Source: Verrucomicrobiota bacterium (lineage in GTDB: Bacteria > Verrucomicrobiota > Verrucomicrobiia > Limisphaerales > UBA9464). Taken from it: a stretch of 39,606 nucleotides of DNA. Of this stretch, positions 26,194-33,254 are shown in pieces. Positions within the stretch are counted from its first letter, which is position 1. Each line of letters begins with the position of its first letter. Location: positions 1 to 39,606 of the forward strand of contig CANGMH010000005.1 in the NCBI GenBank assembly GCA_947454005.1, read 5' to 3'. The notes under the pieces are model-generated. The model was not told the origin of the DNA. It worked only from the letters and a program-made list of their open reading frames with translations, and did not search any database. The translations under genes were made by a program, and so were the position numbers.

Positions 26194-26847
26194 ATGAACC
26201 CGCCTTCCACCATCCTGATCGCCGATGATCATCCGATCTACCGGAAAGGGCTCTGCGAAGTGGTCGAGAGCGATCCTTCGCTGCGGCTGGTAGGCCAGGC
26301 GGCCAACGGCGAGGAGGCCCTGCGATTGATCCGCGGACTTCGCCCGGCGGTGGCGATCCTCGACATCAACATGCCGCGCCTGAGCGGTCTGCAGGTGGCG
26401 CAGGAATTGTCGGGCGAGGCCGCTCCGCCACGGCTGGTGCTGCTCACCATGCACGAGGACGCGGCGTTGTTCGACCGGGCGATGGAGTTGGGCGTGCGCG
26501 CCTATGTCCTGAAGGAAAGCGCGGTCGAGGACCTGCTGACGGCGGTGCGCACGGTGGTCGAGGGCCGCAACTTCATCAGCCCGACCATGGCCACCCTGCT
26601 GCTGAAGCGCCGGGAAGAGGGCGCGGTGTTGCGTCGGGAAAAGCCGGGGCTGGACCTCCTCACGCCCACGGAACGGCGCGTCCTCCGGTTGATCTCCGAG
26701 GACCGCACGACCAAGGAGATCGCCGACCTGCTCGGTCTCAGCCCGCGCACGGTGGAGACGCATCGCCAGAACATGAGCCACAAGCTGCACCTCAGCGGCA
26801 GCCACAGCCTGCTGAAGTTCGCCTTCGACCATAAGGCGCACCTGTAG
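26194..26847 (+). CDS. NarL/FixJ-type response regulator
   Basis: The receiver domain (1-120) has the acidic pair ADDHP (Asp11, Asp12), phospho-acceptor Asp57 in AILDINMP, Thr85 in VLLTMHED and Lys107 in AYVLKES. A LuxR-type helix-turn-helix follows (about 150-212; LTPTERRVLRLISEDRTTKEIADLLGLSPRTVETHRQNMSHKL). All switch residues are present, so normal phosphorylation and DNA binding are expected. The Reg_prop histidine kinase gene begins 18 bp downstream, which makes it the likely partner and places both in one operon. The CE15 esterase gene upstream is a candidate target, but this is only proximity. No clear autoregulatory site was found. Confidence 0.93.
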   Translation: MNPPSTILIADDHPIYRKGLCEVVESDPSLRLVGQAANGEEALRLIRGLRPAVAILDINMPRLSGLQVAQELSGEAAPPRLVLLTMHEDAALFDRAMELGVRAYVLKESAVEDLLTAVRTVVEGRNFISPTMATLLLKRREEGAVLRREKPGLDLLTPTERRVLRLISEDRTTKEIADLLGLSPRTVETHRQNMSHKLHLSGSHSLLKFAFDHKAHL

Positions 26848-26865: not shown

Positions 26866-29800
26866 ATGTCGAACTGCGTCGGATGGATCCAAGGAGCGAT
26901 GCGGGCGGCGACCCGTGTCCTTCGGTGGGCGGTGTCGTCGGTGCTCCTCGGGCTGGCCGCCGGGCCGGCCTCGGTCGCCTCGACGGCGGTGGTCGGCGAC
27001 CTGCCGAAGGAGTATTCCATCGATGTCTTGCAGGTGGAGGACGGCTTGCCGGGCAACACCGTCACGTCCATCGCGCAGACGCCGGACGGCTATCTGTGGT
27101 TCGGCACCTTCCAAGGGTTGGTGCGTTTCGACGGCGTACGTTTCACGGTGTTCGATTCCACCACTCCGGGCTTGGAGAGCGAACGGGCCACCCGGTTGTT
27201 CGTGGACCGGGCGGGGAGCCTGTGGGTCACGATGGAACAAGGCCAGGTCGCGCGCTATGCGGATGGCCGGTTCACGCCCCTGACGAAAACCGATGGTTGG
27301 CCGGGCCTCGCGGTGAAGTGGATGGCGAACTCGGCCGAGAACACCGTGCTGATCACGGTCGGGGCCGATGATTTCGGTCCGCGGATACTCCTGGAGTATG
27401 CGGCGGGGCGTTTCCGCGAGGTGCTTTCCAAGCCCCCGGTCCCGCCCGAGATCGTACCGACACGGGGCTCGGTGGGCGACACGGTCGTGGAAGTGGACAC
27501 CACCGGCCGCCGCTGGGTGGTGCAGGATCGCCGGCTCGGTTTCCTTGAGCGCGGTCGCTGGCAGCCGTGGACACCGCCCGCGGGCGAGCCGGTCCCGACC
27601 ATCGCCCGCATCGCCGCCAGTCCGCGCGGCGGCATATGGGTGTGCGCCGAGGGTCGCATCCGCCGGCTCGTCGACGGGCGCTGGAGCACGGACACACCGA
27701 CGTTCGCTTGGCCGAAGGAGAACGTGGTGATGGAGCTGATGGAGGATTCTGCCGGCCAGCTCTGGGTGGGAAGCTGGAGCAAGGGGCTGATGCTGGGCAG
27801 GCCGGACGGCTCCACCGAATGGCTCACGACCGGACGCGGCTTCACGAGCAACACGGCCAACTGCGTCTTCGAGGACCGCGAGCACAACGTCTGGGTCGGC
27901 ACCACCGCCGGCGGCCTGCTGCGGCTCCGGCACCGCGATTTCTCCACCTACGACCAGCGACACGGCCTGCCGACCCAACCTGCGATGGCCATCGCCAACG
28001 GTGCGGATGAAGTTTGGCTGGGCGTCACCGCCGGCGGCCTGTGGCGGTTGGCCGGGGGACGATCCGCCCCGATCGAACTGCCGGGAGCCCCGGATCCCAC
28101 CGTGCGGTCCCTGTGCTTCGACCGCGGTGGAACGCTCTGGTCGGGCCTGCATGGCAACAGCCTTTTCCGGCATCGCGCGGGTGAGACCGCGCGCTATGAC
28201 CGGGAGCAAGGGCTGTCGCACGAGATCATCTATGCGCTGTTCGAGGATCGGGACGGCATGCTCTGGATCGGCGGCGACAAAGGCGTGAGCCGGTTCGACG
28301 GCCGCAAGTTCGAGACGCTGACGAAGCGCGACGGCTTGTCCTCGGATCTGGTCTCGGCGATCGCCCAGGACCGGGATGGTGCCGTTTGGTTGGGCACCTT
28401 TGGCAGCGGCCTCGACCGCTTCCACGCGGGCCGGTTCCAGACCTTCACGCGTCGCGAAGGGCTGGCGCACGACACGGTGCGGGCGCTGCTGGCCGATGAC
28501 GACGGCACGCTCTGGATCGGCACGGGTGGCGGCGGCCTGAGCCGGTTGCGCGATGGCCGTTTCACGACCTACTCCGCCCGGACCGGGCTGCCGGGCAACG
28601 AGATCTCCGCGGTGCTCGATGACGGTTTGGGCCAGCTTTGGCTCGCCTCCAACCGCGGTGTGTTCCGGGTGGCGCGGGCGGAATTGGAGGCATTCGCCGA
28701 CGGCCGCCGAAACCGGCTGGAAGGCGTCACCTATCTGCCGGCCGACGGGTTGGCCGCCATGGAATCCGCCGCGGGCAATCCGTCCGCCGTGCGCGACCGC
28801 GAGGGTCGCCTGTGGTTTGCTTCCGTGAAAGGGGTGAGCATGGTGGACCCGCGGAAGCTCCGCACCAACCTGGTCCCGCCCACGGCGGTCATCGAGGAGG
28901 TCTGGCTGGATGGCGTCTGCCTGCTCTCGAACGGCAGCCTCGATGGTGACGCGAGCCGGATCCAGGCGACGACCCCTTACCGCGTTCCCCCGGGAAAACA
29001 GCGGCTGGAGATCCGCTACACCGGGCTGAGCCACATCGCCCCGGAAAGGGTGCGCTTCCGGCACCGGCTCACGGGCTTGGACCAAGGCTGGGAGGAGGCG
29101 GGTTCCCGTCGCACGGCCACCTATCACCTGCTGGCTCCCGGCGACTACCATTTCGAGGTCATGGCGCGGAACCATGACGGCGTGTGGAGCCCCGTGGCGG
29201 CGGCCTGGGATTTCAGCGTGCTGCCGGAGTGGCGGCAGACGCTCTGGTTCCGCAGCGGAGCCGGCCTGTTCCTGCTCGCGGGCGGGCTGGCGGCCTACCG
29301 TATGCGGATCCGCACGCTCACCCGGGCCCGGGTGCAGCAGGAGGTCTTCTCGCGCCGCCTCATCGCCTCCCAGGAAAGCGAACGGCAGCGCATCGCGAGG
29401 GAACTGCACGACAGCTTGGGGCAGAATCTGCTGGTCATCAAATGCCGGGTGGCGCTGGCCCAACAGCAATCGGCCCAGCCGGAGAAGCTGGCCGAGCAGT
29501 TGGGCGAGGCGGCGGCCATGACTTCCAGCGCCATCCGCGAGGTCCGCGAGATCTCCCAGGGCCTCCGGCCGTTCCAGCTCGATGAGCTGGGCCTCGGCCA
29601 GGCGCTGGAGGCGGTGGTGAGGAAACTGGCGGCGGCGACCCCGATCCGGTTCGTCGCGGAGATCGCCGAGCTGCGCGGGGTGTTCCCGCCCGAGTTCGAG
29701 ATCAGCTTCTACCGCATCGTGCAGGAATGCCTGAACAACGTGGTGAAGCACTCGAAGGCCGGCGAATGCCGCGTCCTCGTGGCCGACAACGGGTCCCAGG

Positions 29801-29991
29801 TCCGCGCCGAGATCACCGACAACGGCCGAGGGCTGGCGGGTGGGGACCGTCGGCACGGACCTGCGGCGGCCGAAGGCTTCGGCCTGACCAGCATCCGGGA
29901 GCGTGTCCGCACGCTGGGCGGGACGGTGGAGTTCACCTCCCGGCCCGAGGGCGGCACCCGCGTCGTCGTGGTCGTGCCGCGGCGTCCGTGA
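26866..29991 (+). CDS. Sensor histidine kinase with Reg_prop periplasmic propeller and Y_Y_Y domain
   Basis: The protein begins with a signal/anchor sequence (ATG 26899, codon 12, is an alternative start). A large periplasmic sensor follows, made of about eleven to twelve two-component propeller repeats (for example GYLWFGTFQGLVRFDG, AVWLGTFGSGLDRFHAG, TLWIGTGGGGLSRLRDG), then a Y_Y_Y domain (about 690-785; LEIRYTGLSHIAPERVRFRHRL ... GDYHFEVMARNHDG). One transmembrane helix (about 800-818) leads to a HisKA_3 dimerisation domain with His848 in IARELHDSLGQN and an ATPase domain (ECLNNVVKHSK, ITDNGRGL, GFGLTSIRERV, EGGTRVVVVVP). In Bacteroidota such sensors bind oligosaccharides and control polysaccharide loci; a carbohydrate signal is therefore likely. 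It pairs with the upstream regulator. Confidence 0.95.
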   Translation: MSNCVGWIQGAMRAATRVLRWAVSSVLLGLAAGPASVASTAVVGDLPKEYSIDVLQVEDGLPGNTVTSIAQTPDGYLWFGTFQGLVRFDGVRFTVFDSTTPGLESERATRLFVDRAGSLWVTMEQGQVARYADGRFTPLTKTDGWPGLAVKWMANSAENTVLITVGADDFGPRILLEYAAGRFREVLSKPPVPPEIVPTRGSVGDTVVEVDTTGRRWVVQDRRLGFLERGRWQPWTPPAGEPVPTIARIAASPRGGIWVCAEGRIRRLVDGRWSTDTPTFAWPKENVVMELMEDSAGQLWVGSWSKGLMLGRPDGSTEWLTTGRGFTSNTANCVFEDREHNVWVGTTAGGLLRLRHRDFSTYDQRHGLPTQPAMAIANGADEVWLGVTAGGLWRLAGGRSAPIELPGAPDPTVRSLCFDRGGTLWSGLHGNSLFRHRAGETARYDREQGLSHEIIYALFEDRDGMLWIGGDKGVSRFDGRKFETLTKRDGLSSDLVSAIAQDRDGAVWLGTFGSGLDRFHAGRFQTFTRREGLAHDTVRALLADDDGTLWIGTGGGGLSRLRDGRFTTYSARTGLPGNEISAVLDDGLGQLWLASNRGVFRVARAELEAFADGRRNRLEGVTYLPADGLAAMESAAGNPSAVRDREGRLWFASVKGVSMVDPRKLRTNLVPPTAVIEEVWLDGVCLLSNGSLDGDASRIQATTPYRVPPGKQRLEIRYTGLSHIAPERVRFRHRLTGLDQGWEEAGSRRTATYHLLAPGDYHFEVMARNHDGVWSPVAAAWDFSVLPEWRQTLWFRSGAGLFLLAGGLAAYRMRIRTLTRARVQQEVFSRRLIASQESERQRIARELHDSLGQNLLVIKCRVALAQQQSAQPEKLAEQLGEAAAMTSSAIREVREISQGLRPFQLDELGLGQALEAVVRKLAAATPIRFVAEIAELRGVFPPEFEISFYRIVQECLNNVVKHSKAGECRVLVADNGSQVRAEITDNGRGLAGGDRRHGPAAAEGFGLTSIRERVRTLGGTVEFTSRPEGGTRVVVVVPRRP

Positions 29992-30123: not shown

Positions 30124-30489
30124 TTGAAACGAGCCCGCCTGAAATTCCTGATCGTGGATGACCACGCCTCGATGCGCCTGGCGCTGCGCGAGTTGCTGAC
30201 CATCCCGGGCGACAGCGTGCACGAAGCGACGGACGGCGCGGAGGCCGAGGCCGCCTACGAATGGCAGCTGCCCGACTGGGTCATCATGGACGTGCAGATG
30301 CGGCCGGTGGGCGGGCTGGCGGCGACCCGTCACATCACGGCCCGTCATCCGGAGGCCCGCATCGTCATCGTCTCGCAGTTCGATGACCCCGACCTCCGCG
30401 CGCGCGCGGCCGAGGCCGGCGCCCGGGCCTACTTCACCAAGGACGACCTTTCCTGCCTCCCGCGCATGGTCCGCCCGATCCCGGCCTGA
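30124..30489 (+). CDS. Stand-alone response regulator receiver domain protein
   Basis: The start is a TTG codon; no ATG or GTG exists early enough to keep the first beta strand. The 121 residues form one receiver domain with Asp12/Asp13 in IVDDHAS, phospho-acceptor Asp56 in VIMDVQM, Ser84 in IVIVSQFDD and Lys106 in AYFTKDDL. There is no output domain, so it must act through protein contacts, as a phosphate sink, or on the adjacent kinase. It begins 132 bp after the kinase gene and ends one base before the PpiC-type lipoprotein gene, so it appears to head the operon that ends in the giant LamG gene. TTG starts are usually weak, which suggests low expression. Confidence 0.85.
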   Translation: MKRARLKFLIVDDHASMRLALRELLTIPGDSVHEATDGAEAEAAYEWQLPDWVIMDVQMRPVGGLAATRHITARHPEARIVIVSQFDDPDLRARAAEAGARAYFTKDDLSCLPRMVRPIPA

Positions 30490-30490
30490 G

Positions 30491-31417
30491 ATGAGCACAT
30501 CCTCCACCATCATCTTGATCGTCCTGGCCGCAGCGGTGGTCTCATGCCGTCAAGAGAAGCCGGCACCGGTGACGGAGCTGGCGCCGGACGTCGTGGCGAT
30601 GGTGGCCGGGCGTCCGGTGAAACGATCGGCGTTGGAGGCCGAGCTCGCGCGGCGCGGTCCGGGCGTGACGAAGGAAGCGGCGCTCGGCGACCTGGTGCGG
30701 CAGGAAGCGACGCTCGCCCAGGTCCGCGCCTCCGGGTTCGACCGCGATCCCGCGACGGTCGCCGCGATCGAGCGGTTGATGGTGGCGCGTTTCGAGGAAC
30801 GGGAACTGGCGGCGGCGGAGGCCTCGGCGGTGAGCGAGGACGAGGTCCGCGCGGCCTATGCCGCCGACGCGGCGCGGTACGCGGTGCCCGCGGCGGTGCG
30901 GGGCGGCGTGCTGTTCTTGAGATCCAGCCCCAGGTCGGCACCGGAGAAACGCGCGGCGGTGGCGGAGCAGGCGGAACGGTTGCGGATCCAGGCCCAAGCA
31001 GCCGATGGCGCGGCGTTCGAGCGGTTGGTGCGCGAACATTCCGAGGACCAGGCCACCCGATACCAAGCGGGTGACACCGGTTGGTTGAGCGCGGGTGCCG
31101 ACGACCAGCGCTGGGACCCCGCCATCGCCGAGGCGCTCCGCGCGCTCCAGCGACCGGGCGACTGCGCGCCGGTCGTCGCGACGGCGACGGGCTTCTACGT
31201 CGTCCGTCTCACCGGCACGAAACCCGCCGCCACCCGGCCCCTGACCGAGGTCGGGCCAGCCATCCGTCACCAGCTCCAGCAAGCCAAGCGCGAGCAGTCG
31301 ATCGCGGCCTTCCACGCGCGTATGCGCGCCGGTCTCGACATCCGGACCAACACCGCCGTCTTGGCCCGGATCGTCGCCCCCGACCCGTCGACCCCGCGTC
31401 CACCGGCCTTGCCCTGA
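30491..31417 (+). CDS. PpiC-type peptidyl-prolyl isomerase lipoprotein (foldase)
   Basis: The ATG at 30491 lies one base after the previous stop; the longer track ORF starts inside that gene. A lipoprotein signal peptide (IILIVLAAAVVSC, Cys19) is followed by a SurA/PrsA-like helical N-domain (VVAMVAGRPVKRSALEAELARRG ... LVRQEATLAQVRASGF, SEDEVRAAYAADAARYAVP) and a parvulin domain (about 140-250; VRGGVLFLRSS, AFERLVREHSEDQATRYQAGDTGWLS, ALRALQRPGDCAPVVATATGFYVVRLTG). Such proteins help secreted or outer-membrane proteins fold in the periplasm. The operon position before a 603-residue secreted protein and a giant LamG protein suggests it serves those clients. This is inference from spacing (25 and 18 bp gaps). 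Confidence 0.88.
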   Translation: MSTSSTIILIVLAAAVVSCRQEKPAPVTELAPDVVAMVAGRPVKRSALEAELARRGPGVTKEAALGDLVRQEATLAQVRASGFDRDPATVAAIERLMVARFEERELAAAEASAVSEDEVRAAYAADAARYAVPAAVRGGVLFLRSSPRSAPEKRAAVAEQAERLRIQAQAADGAAFERLVREHSEDQATRYQAGDTGWLSAGADDQRWDPAIAEALRALQRPGDCAPVVATATGFYVVRLTGTKPAATRPLTEVGPAIRHQLQQAKREQSIAAFHARMRAGLDIRTNTAVLARIVAPDPSTPRPPALP

Positions 31418-31442: not shown

Positions 31443-33254
31443 ATGAAGACCCCATCCTCCTCCGCTTCGCTGTGGCGCCTTGTCGTCTGCCTGCTGTCGT
31501 TGCCGCTGGCCGCGCTGCTGGCGCGGGCCACGCCGACGACCACGCAGACCGTCACGCTCAACCCGGGCTGGAACGCCATCCATCTCGAGGTGGAGCCGGC
31601 GAACCCCGATCTGAGCGCGGTCTTCGACGGCGTGGCGGCGGACAGCGTGTGGGCCTACGGGAACAACCTGGGCCAGCCCGATTTCATCGCCGAGGTCACC
31701 GAGACGGCGCTGGCCAAGGCCGGCTGGTTCTCGTGGGTGCCCACCAACCGCGTCGATGCCTTCCAGAACAACCTTTTCCAGGTCCAGGTCAACCGGTCGT
31801 ACCTGGTGAAGTTCACCGGCGCGACCGCCGCCACGCTCACCTTGTCCGGCCGGCCGACCACCCGCACGCGGGCCTGGTTGCCGGATTCGTACAATTTCCG
31901 CGGCCTGCCGGTGGACCCCGCGCTCCCGCCGACGTTCCTCAGCTTCTTCCGTCCGTCCACCGCCCATTATTCGACGAAGACCGGTCTCGCGGCGATGTAC
32001 CGGCTCGACCCGACGGGAGCGTGGCAACGGATCGTGGCCACGGACCTGGTGCTCCGCGGCGAGGCCTATTGGATCTGGTGCCAAGGCGGTTCGGATTTCG
32101 TCGCGCCGTTCGTGGCGGCGCCGGTCTTCGGGGACGGGCTCGAGTTCGGCCTCTCTGCCGACGACGTGGAATTGGACCTGAAGAACCTGGGGAACACGGC
32201 CTTCAACGCCACCGTCCGAGACCTCGGCGCCCCGACGCCCAACCCGTTGTCGTATGCCCAGCGCTTGTCCGACCAGACGCTGAACTGGCCCGGGCTGCCG
32301 ACGCCGTGGGTGCGGCCGGTGCCGACGGGCGCCGCCCGCCGCGAGCGGATCGCGGTCCGCCGCGCCGACATGACGACGGATCTGTTCGAGACGGTCCTCG
32401 AGATCACTGACGGTCTGGGCACCCGTCACCTGTTGCCTGTGTCGGTCACCCGCGCGTTGACGCCGGTCGGCGCGGCACTGCCGGCGGTGGCAGCCCACGC
32501 CGGCCTGTGGGTCGGGGTCGCTACGTTGAACGCCGTCAGCGAGGCGCATTCCGGTCCGCTCACGACGAACATCTCGCAGGGTTTCACGGTCCAGCTCGAG
32601 ACCAATGCCGTCTCCAGGATCATCACCACGAACCTGGTCCCGCACTCGGTGGTGCGCACGGCGCCGTCCATGGCGCCCACGCCCACCGGCAGCGAGCTCG
32701 GTCTCAGGCTTCTTCTGCACGTGGATGCCGCGGGCCAGACCCGGCTGCTGAAGGAGGTCATCGAGATGTGGCAGGACGGCACGACCACCAACGATGCCTC
32801 CGGCACCGCGATCATCGACCGCCCAGGCCGCCACGTGCTGCTGACGGACGATTCCCTGGTCGGCAGGTACACCGGCGTGTCCGCCCGGGACGGCGTGCCG
32901 GTCGGCCGGCGGCTGAGCACCGCGGGTTTCGATTTCGCGGAAAACGAACTGCCGATGTCCGGCGTGTTCGACATCGGGTCGTCGGTGGTCGCGACGAACA
33001 CCATGTCCGATACCTTCGCCCGGAACCCCTTCAAGCACCGCTACCATCCGGACCACCAGAAGGGCTACGAGATCCGTCGCGTCATCGGGCTGGAGTTCGG
33101 CGCCGCCCCGGCCAATCCACCGCCCGGCTACGGCGAGCGCGTTCTCGACGGCATCTACCGCGAGACGGTCTCCGGCCTCCACCGCACCAACATCGTGGTC
33201 AGCGGCGCTTTCCGGCTGACCCGCATCGCGACCACCGCCGTGCTCAACCAGTAA
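31443..33254 (+). CDS. Secreted protein of unknown function preceding the giant LamG gene
   Basis: The protein has a signal peptide (LWRLVVCLLSLPLAALLARA) and no further membrane helix. I do not recognise a named family. The N-terminal part reads as a beta-rich domain (QTVTLNPGWNAIHLEVEPANPDLSAVF, VNRSYLVKFTGATAATLTLSGRP), and a central block has AYWIWCQGGSDFVAPF and VELDLKNLGNTAFNATVRD, like an Ig/HYDIN-type strand pattern. A C-terminal block contains RPGRHVLLTDDSL and a His-rich stretch (NPFKHRYHPDHQKGYEIRR) that could bind metal. No enzyme motif is visible. It sits between the foldase lipoprotein and the giant LamG gene with 25 and 18 bp gaps, so it is probably a co-secreted partner or an accessory of the giant protein. 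Confidence 0.8.
   Translation: MKTPSSSASLWRLVVCLLSLPLAALLARATPTTTQTVTLNPGWNAIHLEVEPANPDLSAVFDGVAADSVWAYGNNLGQPDFIAEVTETALAKAGWFSWVPTNRVDAFQNNLFQVQVNRSYLVKFTGATAATLTLSGRPTTRTRAWLPDSYNFRGLPVDPALPPTFLSFFRPSTAHYSTKTGLAAMYRLDPTGAWQRIVATDLVLRGEAYWIWCQGGSDFVAPFVAAPVFGDGLEFGLSADDVELDLKNLGNTAFNATVRDLGAPTPNPLSYAQRLSDQTLNWPGLPTPWVRPVPTGAARRERIAVRRADMTTDLFETVLEITDGLGTRHLLPVSVTRALTPVGAALPAVAAHAGLWVGVATLNAVSEAHSGPLTTNISQGFTVQLETNAVSRIITTNLVPHSVVRTAPSMAPTPTGSELGLRLLLHVDAAGQTRLLKEVIEMWQDGTTTNDASGTAIIDRPGRHVLLTDDSLVGRYTGVSARDGVPVGRRLSTAGFDFAENELPMSGVFDIGSSVVATNTMSDTFARNPFKHRYHPDHQKGYEIRRVIGLEFGAAPANPPPGYGERVLDGIYRETVSGLHRTNIVVSGAFRLTRIATTAVLNQ

What the first reader, a model, noticed from the sequence alone, without database searches (positions are those of the whole stretch)
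31443..33254. Unrecognised 603-residue secreted protein as probable partner of the giant protein
It has no known enzyme motif, an early LNPGWNAIHLEVEP beta segment and a His-rich patch (KHRYHPDHQKGYE). Its fixed place before the LamG gene suggests a secretion accessory, anchor or binding partner rather than a free enzyme.
Basis: inference. Interest (0 to 1): 0.5.

Follow-up and report, generated by a model that had tools for sequence, protein, structure and literature searches.

The report
Dedicated secreted partner of giant proteins
This gene makes an exported protein of an undescribed family that, across a whole bacterial phylum, sits next to and is inherited together with one particular kind of giant exported protein, so the two very probably work as a pair, although what the pair does is still unknown.

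Summary
The 603-residue ORF is real (31443-33254, Sec signal peptide) and matches nothing in Pfam, NCBIfam, PHROGs or PDB sequences. It belongs to a Verrucomicrobiota-wide family with up to about a dozen copies per genome. The partner idea holds, but the tie is not to LamG: the neighbouring giants share an undescribed ~1,300-residue C-terminal core, with variable LamG, FG-GAP or Ig-like parts in front. Of 78 homologues with at least 5 kb downstream held, 63 are followed by a core-bearing giant and 12 by a giant cut off or without a core call; most of the cut ones were completed later. In 289 sampled genomes all 43 with the core also have the family (Fisher 4e-47). Partner and core diverge together, also among paralogues of one genome. 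The window's giant is cut by the contig end; a matching end lies on contig C116. The operon includes a parvulin lipoprotein (window clade) or tail-fibre-like proteins. In eight relatives a SpvB/TcB-like gene adjoins it, hinting at a Tc-like device, but the giants fail the TcA profile. Four conserved His in the C-terminal domain leave a metal-dependent or enzymatic role open. Structure prediction failed (pLDDT 30-33).

The parts
31443..33254 (+). 603-residue secreted protein, the finding (P0001)
   Evidence: no family match
31443..31529 (+). Sec signal peptide, residues about 1-29 (ends ...LLARA); no lipobox
   Evidence: read from sequence; hydrophobic helix also (low confidence)
31557..31598 (+). 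L-x-P-G-W-N segment (residues 39-52) opening the N-terminal region (about 30-345), which may hold two copies of one module
   Evidence: G42, W43, N44 96-100% conserved; repeat only weak
32490..33251 (+). C-terminal domain, residues 350-603 (from GLWVG); in relatives it is encoded alone, takes LamG insertions or has LamG in front
32718..32720 (+). H426, invariant in 76 homologues
33024..33056 (+). NPFKHRYHPDH motif (residues 528-538) with H532, H535, H538; most relatives continue DNLDxxF, lost in the window clade
30491..31417 (+). parvulin-type peptidyl-prolyl isomerase, predicted lipoprotein (MSTSS...VVSC)
   Evidence: Rotamase, Pfam E 3e-13 to 1e-9; same gene before the partner in 12 loci
30124..30489 (+). 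single receiver-domain response regulator, ends 1 bp before the isomerase start codon
33273..39606 (+). giant exported protein, N-terminal 2111 residues (LamG, Big_9, cadherin-like); cut inside a LamG domain by the contig end
   Evidence: probable C-terminal part with core on contig C116
26194..29991 (+). two-component pair: NarL-type regulator (26194-26847) and Reg_prop/Y_Y_Y/HisKA_3 sensor kinase (26866-29991), upstream; possible regulator of the operon
   Evidence: kinase domains; regulator read from sequence; position; link to the operon inferred

Best explanation
P0001 is the dedicated, exported partner subunit of a family of giant exported proteins that share one C-terminal core. Shown: the pair is adjacent, co-occurs and diverges together. 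Inferred: the isomerase lipoprotein helps fold the chains in the periplasm; P0001, through its C-terminal GLWVG/His-rich domain, docks on the giant's conserved core, while its N-terminal GWN region and the giant's variable lectin-like front contact the cell envelope, a sister subunit or the target surface. It would act stoichiometrically as a structural or assembly subunit of an extracellular complex, one cognate partner per giant, rather than as a free enzyme.
For: Of 78 homologues with at least 5 kb held downstream, 63 are followed on the same strand by a strict core-bearing giant, 9 by a giant cut before its core and 3 by a giant without a strict core call; background 8 of 246 other genes followed within two genes by a >1500-residue gene. 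Seven of the nine cut giants proved to have the core. Phylum sample: family in 47 and core in 43 of 289 genomes, all 43 shared (Fisher 4e-47). Relatives: 54 and 51 of 96, 48 shared (P 6e-17). Distances of partner and core correlate: rho 0.60 over 63 pairs, 0 of 1000 within-genome re-pairings reach it; rho 0.90 over seven pairs in one genome; nearest neighbour agrees in 38 of 63, about 1 expected. Fusions: whole module at the C-end of 2,350-3,300-residue proteins (L037-L039); LamG inserted into or fused before the C-domain.
Against: Adjacent genes duplicate and move together, so co-divergence does not prove contact. No interaction, localisation or structure was obtained (pLDDT 30 and 33). Conserved His426/532/535/538, Arg490/546 and Glu574 could mean catalysis. 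A few homologues stand without a giant in held sequence (L059, L071).
Confidence: 0.6

Rival explanations
1. Maturation or export factor: P0001 is a metal-dependent enzyme or chaperone that processes, cross-links or escorts its cognate giant and is not part of the final complex.
For: Four near-invariant His with Arg490, Arg546 and Glu574 in the C-domain; a parvulin folding lipoprotein directly before it in the window clade, overlapping by 4 bp in L024 and L025.
Against: No enzyme family match in Pfam, NCBIfam or PDB sequences. Insertion of LamG domains into the C-domain suits a surface-exposed subunit better. The N-terminal half has no comparable conserved polar site.
Confidence: 0.22
2. The operon is a Tc-like (ABC-toxin-like) delivery device: the giant is a distant TcA-like translocator, the SpvB/RHS protein its cargo cocoon, and P0001 with the fibre-like proteins extra subunits.
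For: SpvB (with TcdB_midN and/or RHS domains where enough of the gene is held) directly next to the giant or its operon in 8 relative genomes; giants of about 2,200-3,600 residues with variable lectin-like front, a helix-rich stretch and a beta-rich C-terminal end in crude propensities.
Against: TcA TcB-binding profile PF18276: none over cut-off in 96 genomes, one weak hit (E 0.88) in 25 cores, none in 31 C-termini at E up to 10. No SpvB in the window's genome nor next to most giants. No PDB relative by sequence.
Confidence: 0.12
3. Neighbourhood only: P0001 is an unrelated exported protein that travels with the giant because both sit in one mobile or co-regulated block.
For: Adjacency alone gives co-occurrence and co-divergence.
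Against: Retained next to the core across dozens of genera with changing intervening genes; decayed remnants of both lie on one contig in G068.
Confidence: 0.06

Closest known systems
Tc (ABC) toxin complexes, TcA/TcB/TcC
   Same: Giant exported protein of about 2,500 residues with variable front and conserved C-terminal end; SpvB/TcdB_midN/RHS gene beside it in some relatives
   Different: Giant fails the TcA TcB-binding profile; extra obligate partner of an undescribed family; no SpvB gene in the window's genome
Giant adhesins with dedicated accessory proteins (two-partner secretion, RTX/type I adhesins)
   Same: A giant repeat-rich exported protein with a dedicated neighbour gene
   Different: P0001 has no transporter, POTRA or barrel domain match and is itself exported
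Tail-fibre-like proteins with collar or endosialidase chaperone (Peptidase_S74) domains
   Same: Such genes stand between partner and giant in about 30 loci
   Different: They are a neighbour family, not P0001; absent from the window operon
Reported giant proteins of PVC-superphylum bacteria (PMC12057145)
   Same: Very large predicted extracellular proteins with carbohydrate-binding-like domains in the PVC superphylum
   Different: The passages read describe no partner protein or shared core

Membership tests
P0001 family (defined here) | GWN opening, GLWVG, H426, R490, NPFxHxxHPxH, G570, G588 in one exported protein | tested here: met
P0001 family (defined here) | followed by a giant with the shared C-terminal core | tested here: inconclusive
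   Giant present but cut by contig end; a core-bearing end on C116 has the same three nearest relatives
Tc toxin complex (giant as TcA) | TcB-binding C-terminal domain (PF18276) | tested here: not met
   (relatives' cores; the window's giant is cut before this part)
Tc toxin complex | TcB/SpvB-RHS gene in the locus | tested here: not met
   Met in 8 relatives; no SpvB anywhere in the window's genome, which is 89% complete
Tc toxin complex | Pentameric pore-forming channel | not testable with these tools
Two-partner secretion (P0001 as TpsB-like) | POTRA and outer-membrane barrel domains in the partner | tested here: not met
   No such match
Known enzyme family | Significant match to a characterised enzyme profile | tested here: not met
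Parvulin PPIase (neighbour gene) | Rotamase domain | tested here: met

The most novel reading that the evidence does not exclude
A phylum-wide, previously undescribed class of extracellular giant-protein machine in Verrucomicrobiota, with its own conserved core, an obligate cognate partner (P0001 family) and exchangeable target-binding front ends and fibre proteins, which in some lineages carries SpvB/RHS cargo.
Probability: 0.3. Interest if true: 0.85.

Novelty: new variant of a known kind. Interest (0 to 1): 0.6.

Why it matters
Giant proteins in environmental bacteria are often noted but rarely tied to a mechanism. Here one class gets a definable core, a cognate partner and a recurring operon, which makes it searchable and testable. 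If the SpvB/RHS link is functional, many free-living Verrucomicrobiota carry a delivery device unlike the known ones.

Tried and rejected
IMG/VR scans with the family and core alignments and a plasmid tblastn: no relative. Profile of the core against PDB sequences: only coiled-coil or chance hits. Internal repeat in the N-terminal region: weak (E 3.5e-4 in one comparison, probability 37%), not claimed. First core count used a model that also caught LamG; replaced by a strict core model. An 'EPxxVxYG' neighbour family was seen, but its iterated profile drifted onto unrelated long proteins, so no counts are given. Literature: no description of this pair or core found; the library lacks preprints and most subscription journals.

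Full report
The ORF at 31443-33254 is real: 603 residues, ATG, a Sec-type signal sequence and tight spacing to both neighbours, 25 bp after the stop of the isomerase gene and 18 bp before the giant. A home-made codon-usage gene caller also picks it and its neighbours, with slightly later starts. Its own genome, a 4.3 Mb draft of 460 contigs, has one copy. The nearest named relative is a Verrucomicrobiales pond MAG, 63-65% identical.

Nothing known matches it. Pfam, NCBIfam, PHROGs and PDB sequences are empty for P0001 and, for Pfam and NCBIfam, apart from single chance-level hits, for 39 homologues down to about 25% identity. The conserved positions in 76 homologues are telling: G42, W43, N44, W95, Y120, L121, W145, G154, A208 and W210 in the N-terminal part; G354, L355, W356, G358, H426, R490, P529, H532, H535, P536, H538, R546, G570, E574, G588 and R594 in the C-terminal part. 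In most relatives the His motif reads NPFxHxYHPDHDNLDxxF; the window's clade lost the DNLDxxF part.

Homologues occur in 54 of 96 relatives and 47 of 289 genomes sampled over the phylum, often several per genome. About a hundred loci were fetched and genes called. The pattern is uniform: partner, optionally one to three tail-fibre-like genes (collar and Peptidase_S74 domains in some), then a giant. With a strict core model, 63 of 78 homologues with at least 5 kb downstream are followed by a core-bearing giant, 9 by a giant cut by the end of the held stretch, 3 by a giant without a strict core call and 3 by none; 8 of 246 other genes are followed within two genes by a protein over 1500 residues. 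Extensions showed the core in L024, L025, L026, L030, L042 and L084, and in L027. One of the three 'none' (L091) has a core-bearing gene further along, behind two opposite genes.

The giants share about 1,300 residues at the C-terminus, 40% mean column identity over 25 sequences from across the phylum, ending at a nearly constant last strand. No Pfam, NCBIfam or PDB family covers it. In front of it lie variable LamG, FG-GAP or unassigned regions; in the window LamG, Big_9 and cadherin-like. The tie is thus between P0001 and the core, not LamG. The window's giant is cut at the contig end, which is the window's end. The only core in the genome is on contig C116, in a 2,577-residue frame that opens inside a LamG domain, as the window's giant closes inside one. 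Its core and the window's partner have the same three nearest relatives, L024, L025 and L026. That they are one gene is inferred; the ends share no 15-mer and were not joined.

Co-occurrence is close to strict: all 43 core-bearing genomes of the phylum sample carry the family, and the four family-only genomes hold a fragment, an interrupted copy or a marginal hit. Among relatives 48 have both, 6 only the family, 3 only the core, and several exceptions look like contig edges or incomplete drafts. Pairs diverge together: rho 0.60 for 63 pairs, not reached by any of 1000 within-genome re-pairings (maximum 0.58); rho 0.90 for seven pairs in one genome. This shows co-inheritance as cognate pairs, not contact.

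Architecture gives further hints. N- and C-terminal halves are separate adjacent genes in over ten loci; LamG domains are inserted near residue 557 in L047, L065, L073 and L074 and placed before the C-domain in L052, L053, L087, L094 and L102; other inserts sit near residue 497. In L037-L039 the whole module forms the C-end of 2,350-3,300-residue proteins, and in L038 and L039 LamG-bearing genes follow directly. A domain that accepts lectin-like inserts is probably exposed.

In the window clade a parvulin lipoprotein gene comes directly before the partner (12 loci), overlapping it by 4 bp in L024 and L025. In eight relative genomes a SpvB gene, with TcdB_midN and/or RHS where enough of it is held, adjoins the giant or its operon. 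This suggests a Tc-like device, but the giants do not match the TcA TcB-binding profile and the window's genome has no SpvB gene, so it is not filed as one.

How it most likely works: shown are export (signal peptide), strict pairing with one giant family, and a recurring operon with a folding lipoprotein or fibre-like proteins. Inferred is that P0001 docks on the giant's core as a structural or assembly subunit of an extracellular complex. A maturation enzyme or chaperone role is the main rival because of the conserved His, Arg and Glu.

Limits: drafts and home-made gene calls; loci were taken from the best hits, not at random; the genome searches score only a limited number of candidates per genome; phyla outside Verrucomicrobiota were not sampled; two-sequence structure predictions failed.

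Noticed in passing
G000:C116:3211-10941 (L140): The only copy of the giant's C-terminal core in the window's genome, in a frame running off the contig inside a LamG domain; probably the missing end of the window's giant.
   Followed up: partly
L034:1-309, L035:11850-12998, L045:3-1985, L054:3260-10216, L068:3-1775: SpvB genes (TcdB_midN and RHS where enough is held) beside the giant or its operon, in eight relative genomes; half of the 16 SpvB-bearing relatives have one there.
   Followed up: partly
window 30124-30489 and upstream of L021, L024, L025, L029, L033, L048, L055: A single receiver-domain gene (often after a NarL-type regulator) closely precedes the operon: 11 of 70 family loci against 36 of 456 other genes.
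   Followed up: partly
L034:7736-8866 and similar genes in about 30 loci: Tail-fibre-like proteins (YQGxL opening, some with collar or Peptidase_S74 domains) lie between partner and giant, one to three copies.
   Followed up: partly
L118:5406-6206, L051:10221-11033, L093:11577-14195: Another recurring neighbour, opening PxPxxxYGxV, some with TSP3 repeats, before the partner or after the giant.
   Followed up: partly
G068:C78:29616-34098: Decayed remnants of both partner and core with stop codons on one contig.
   Followed up: no
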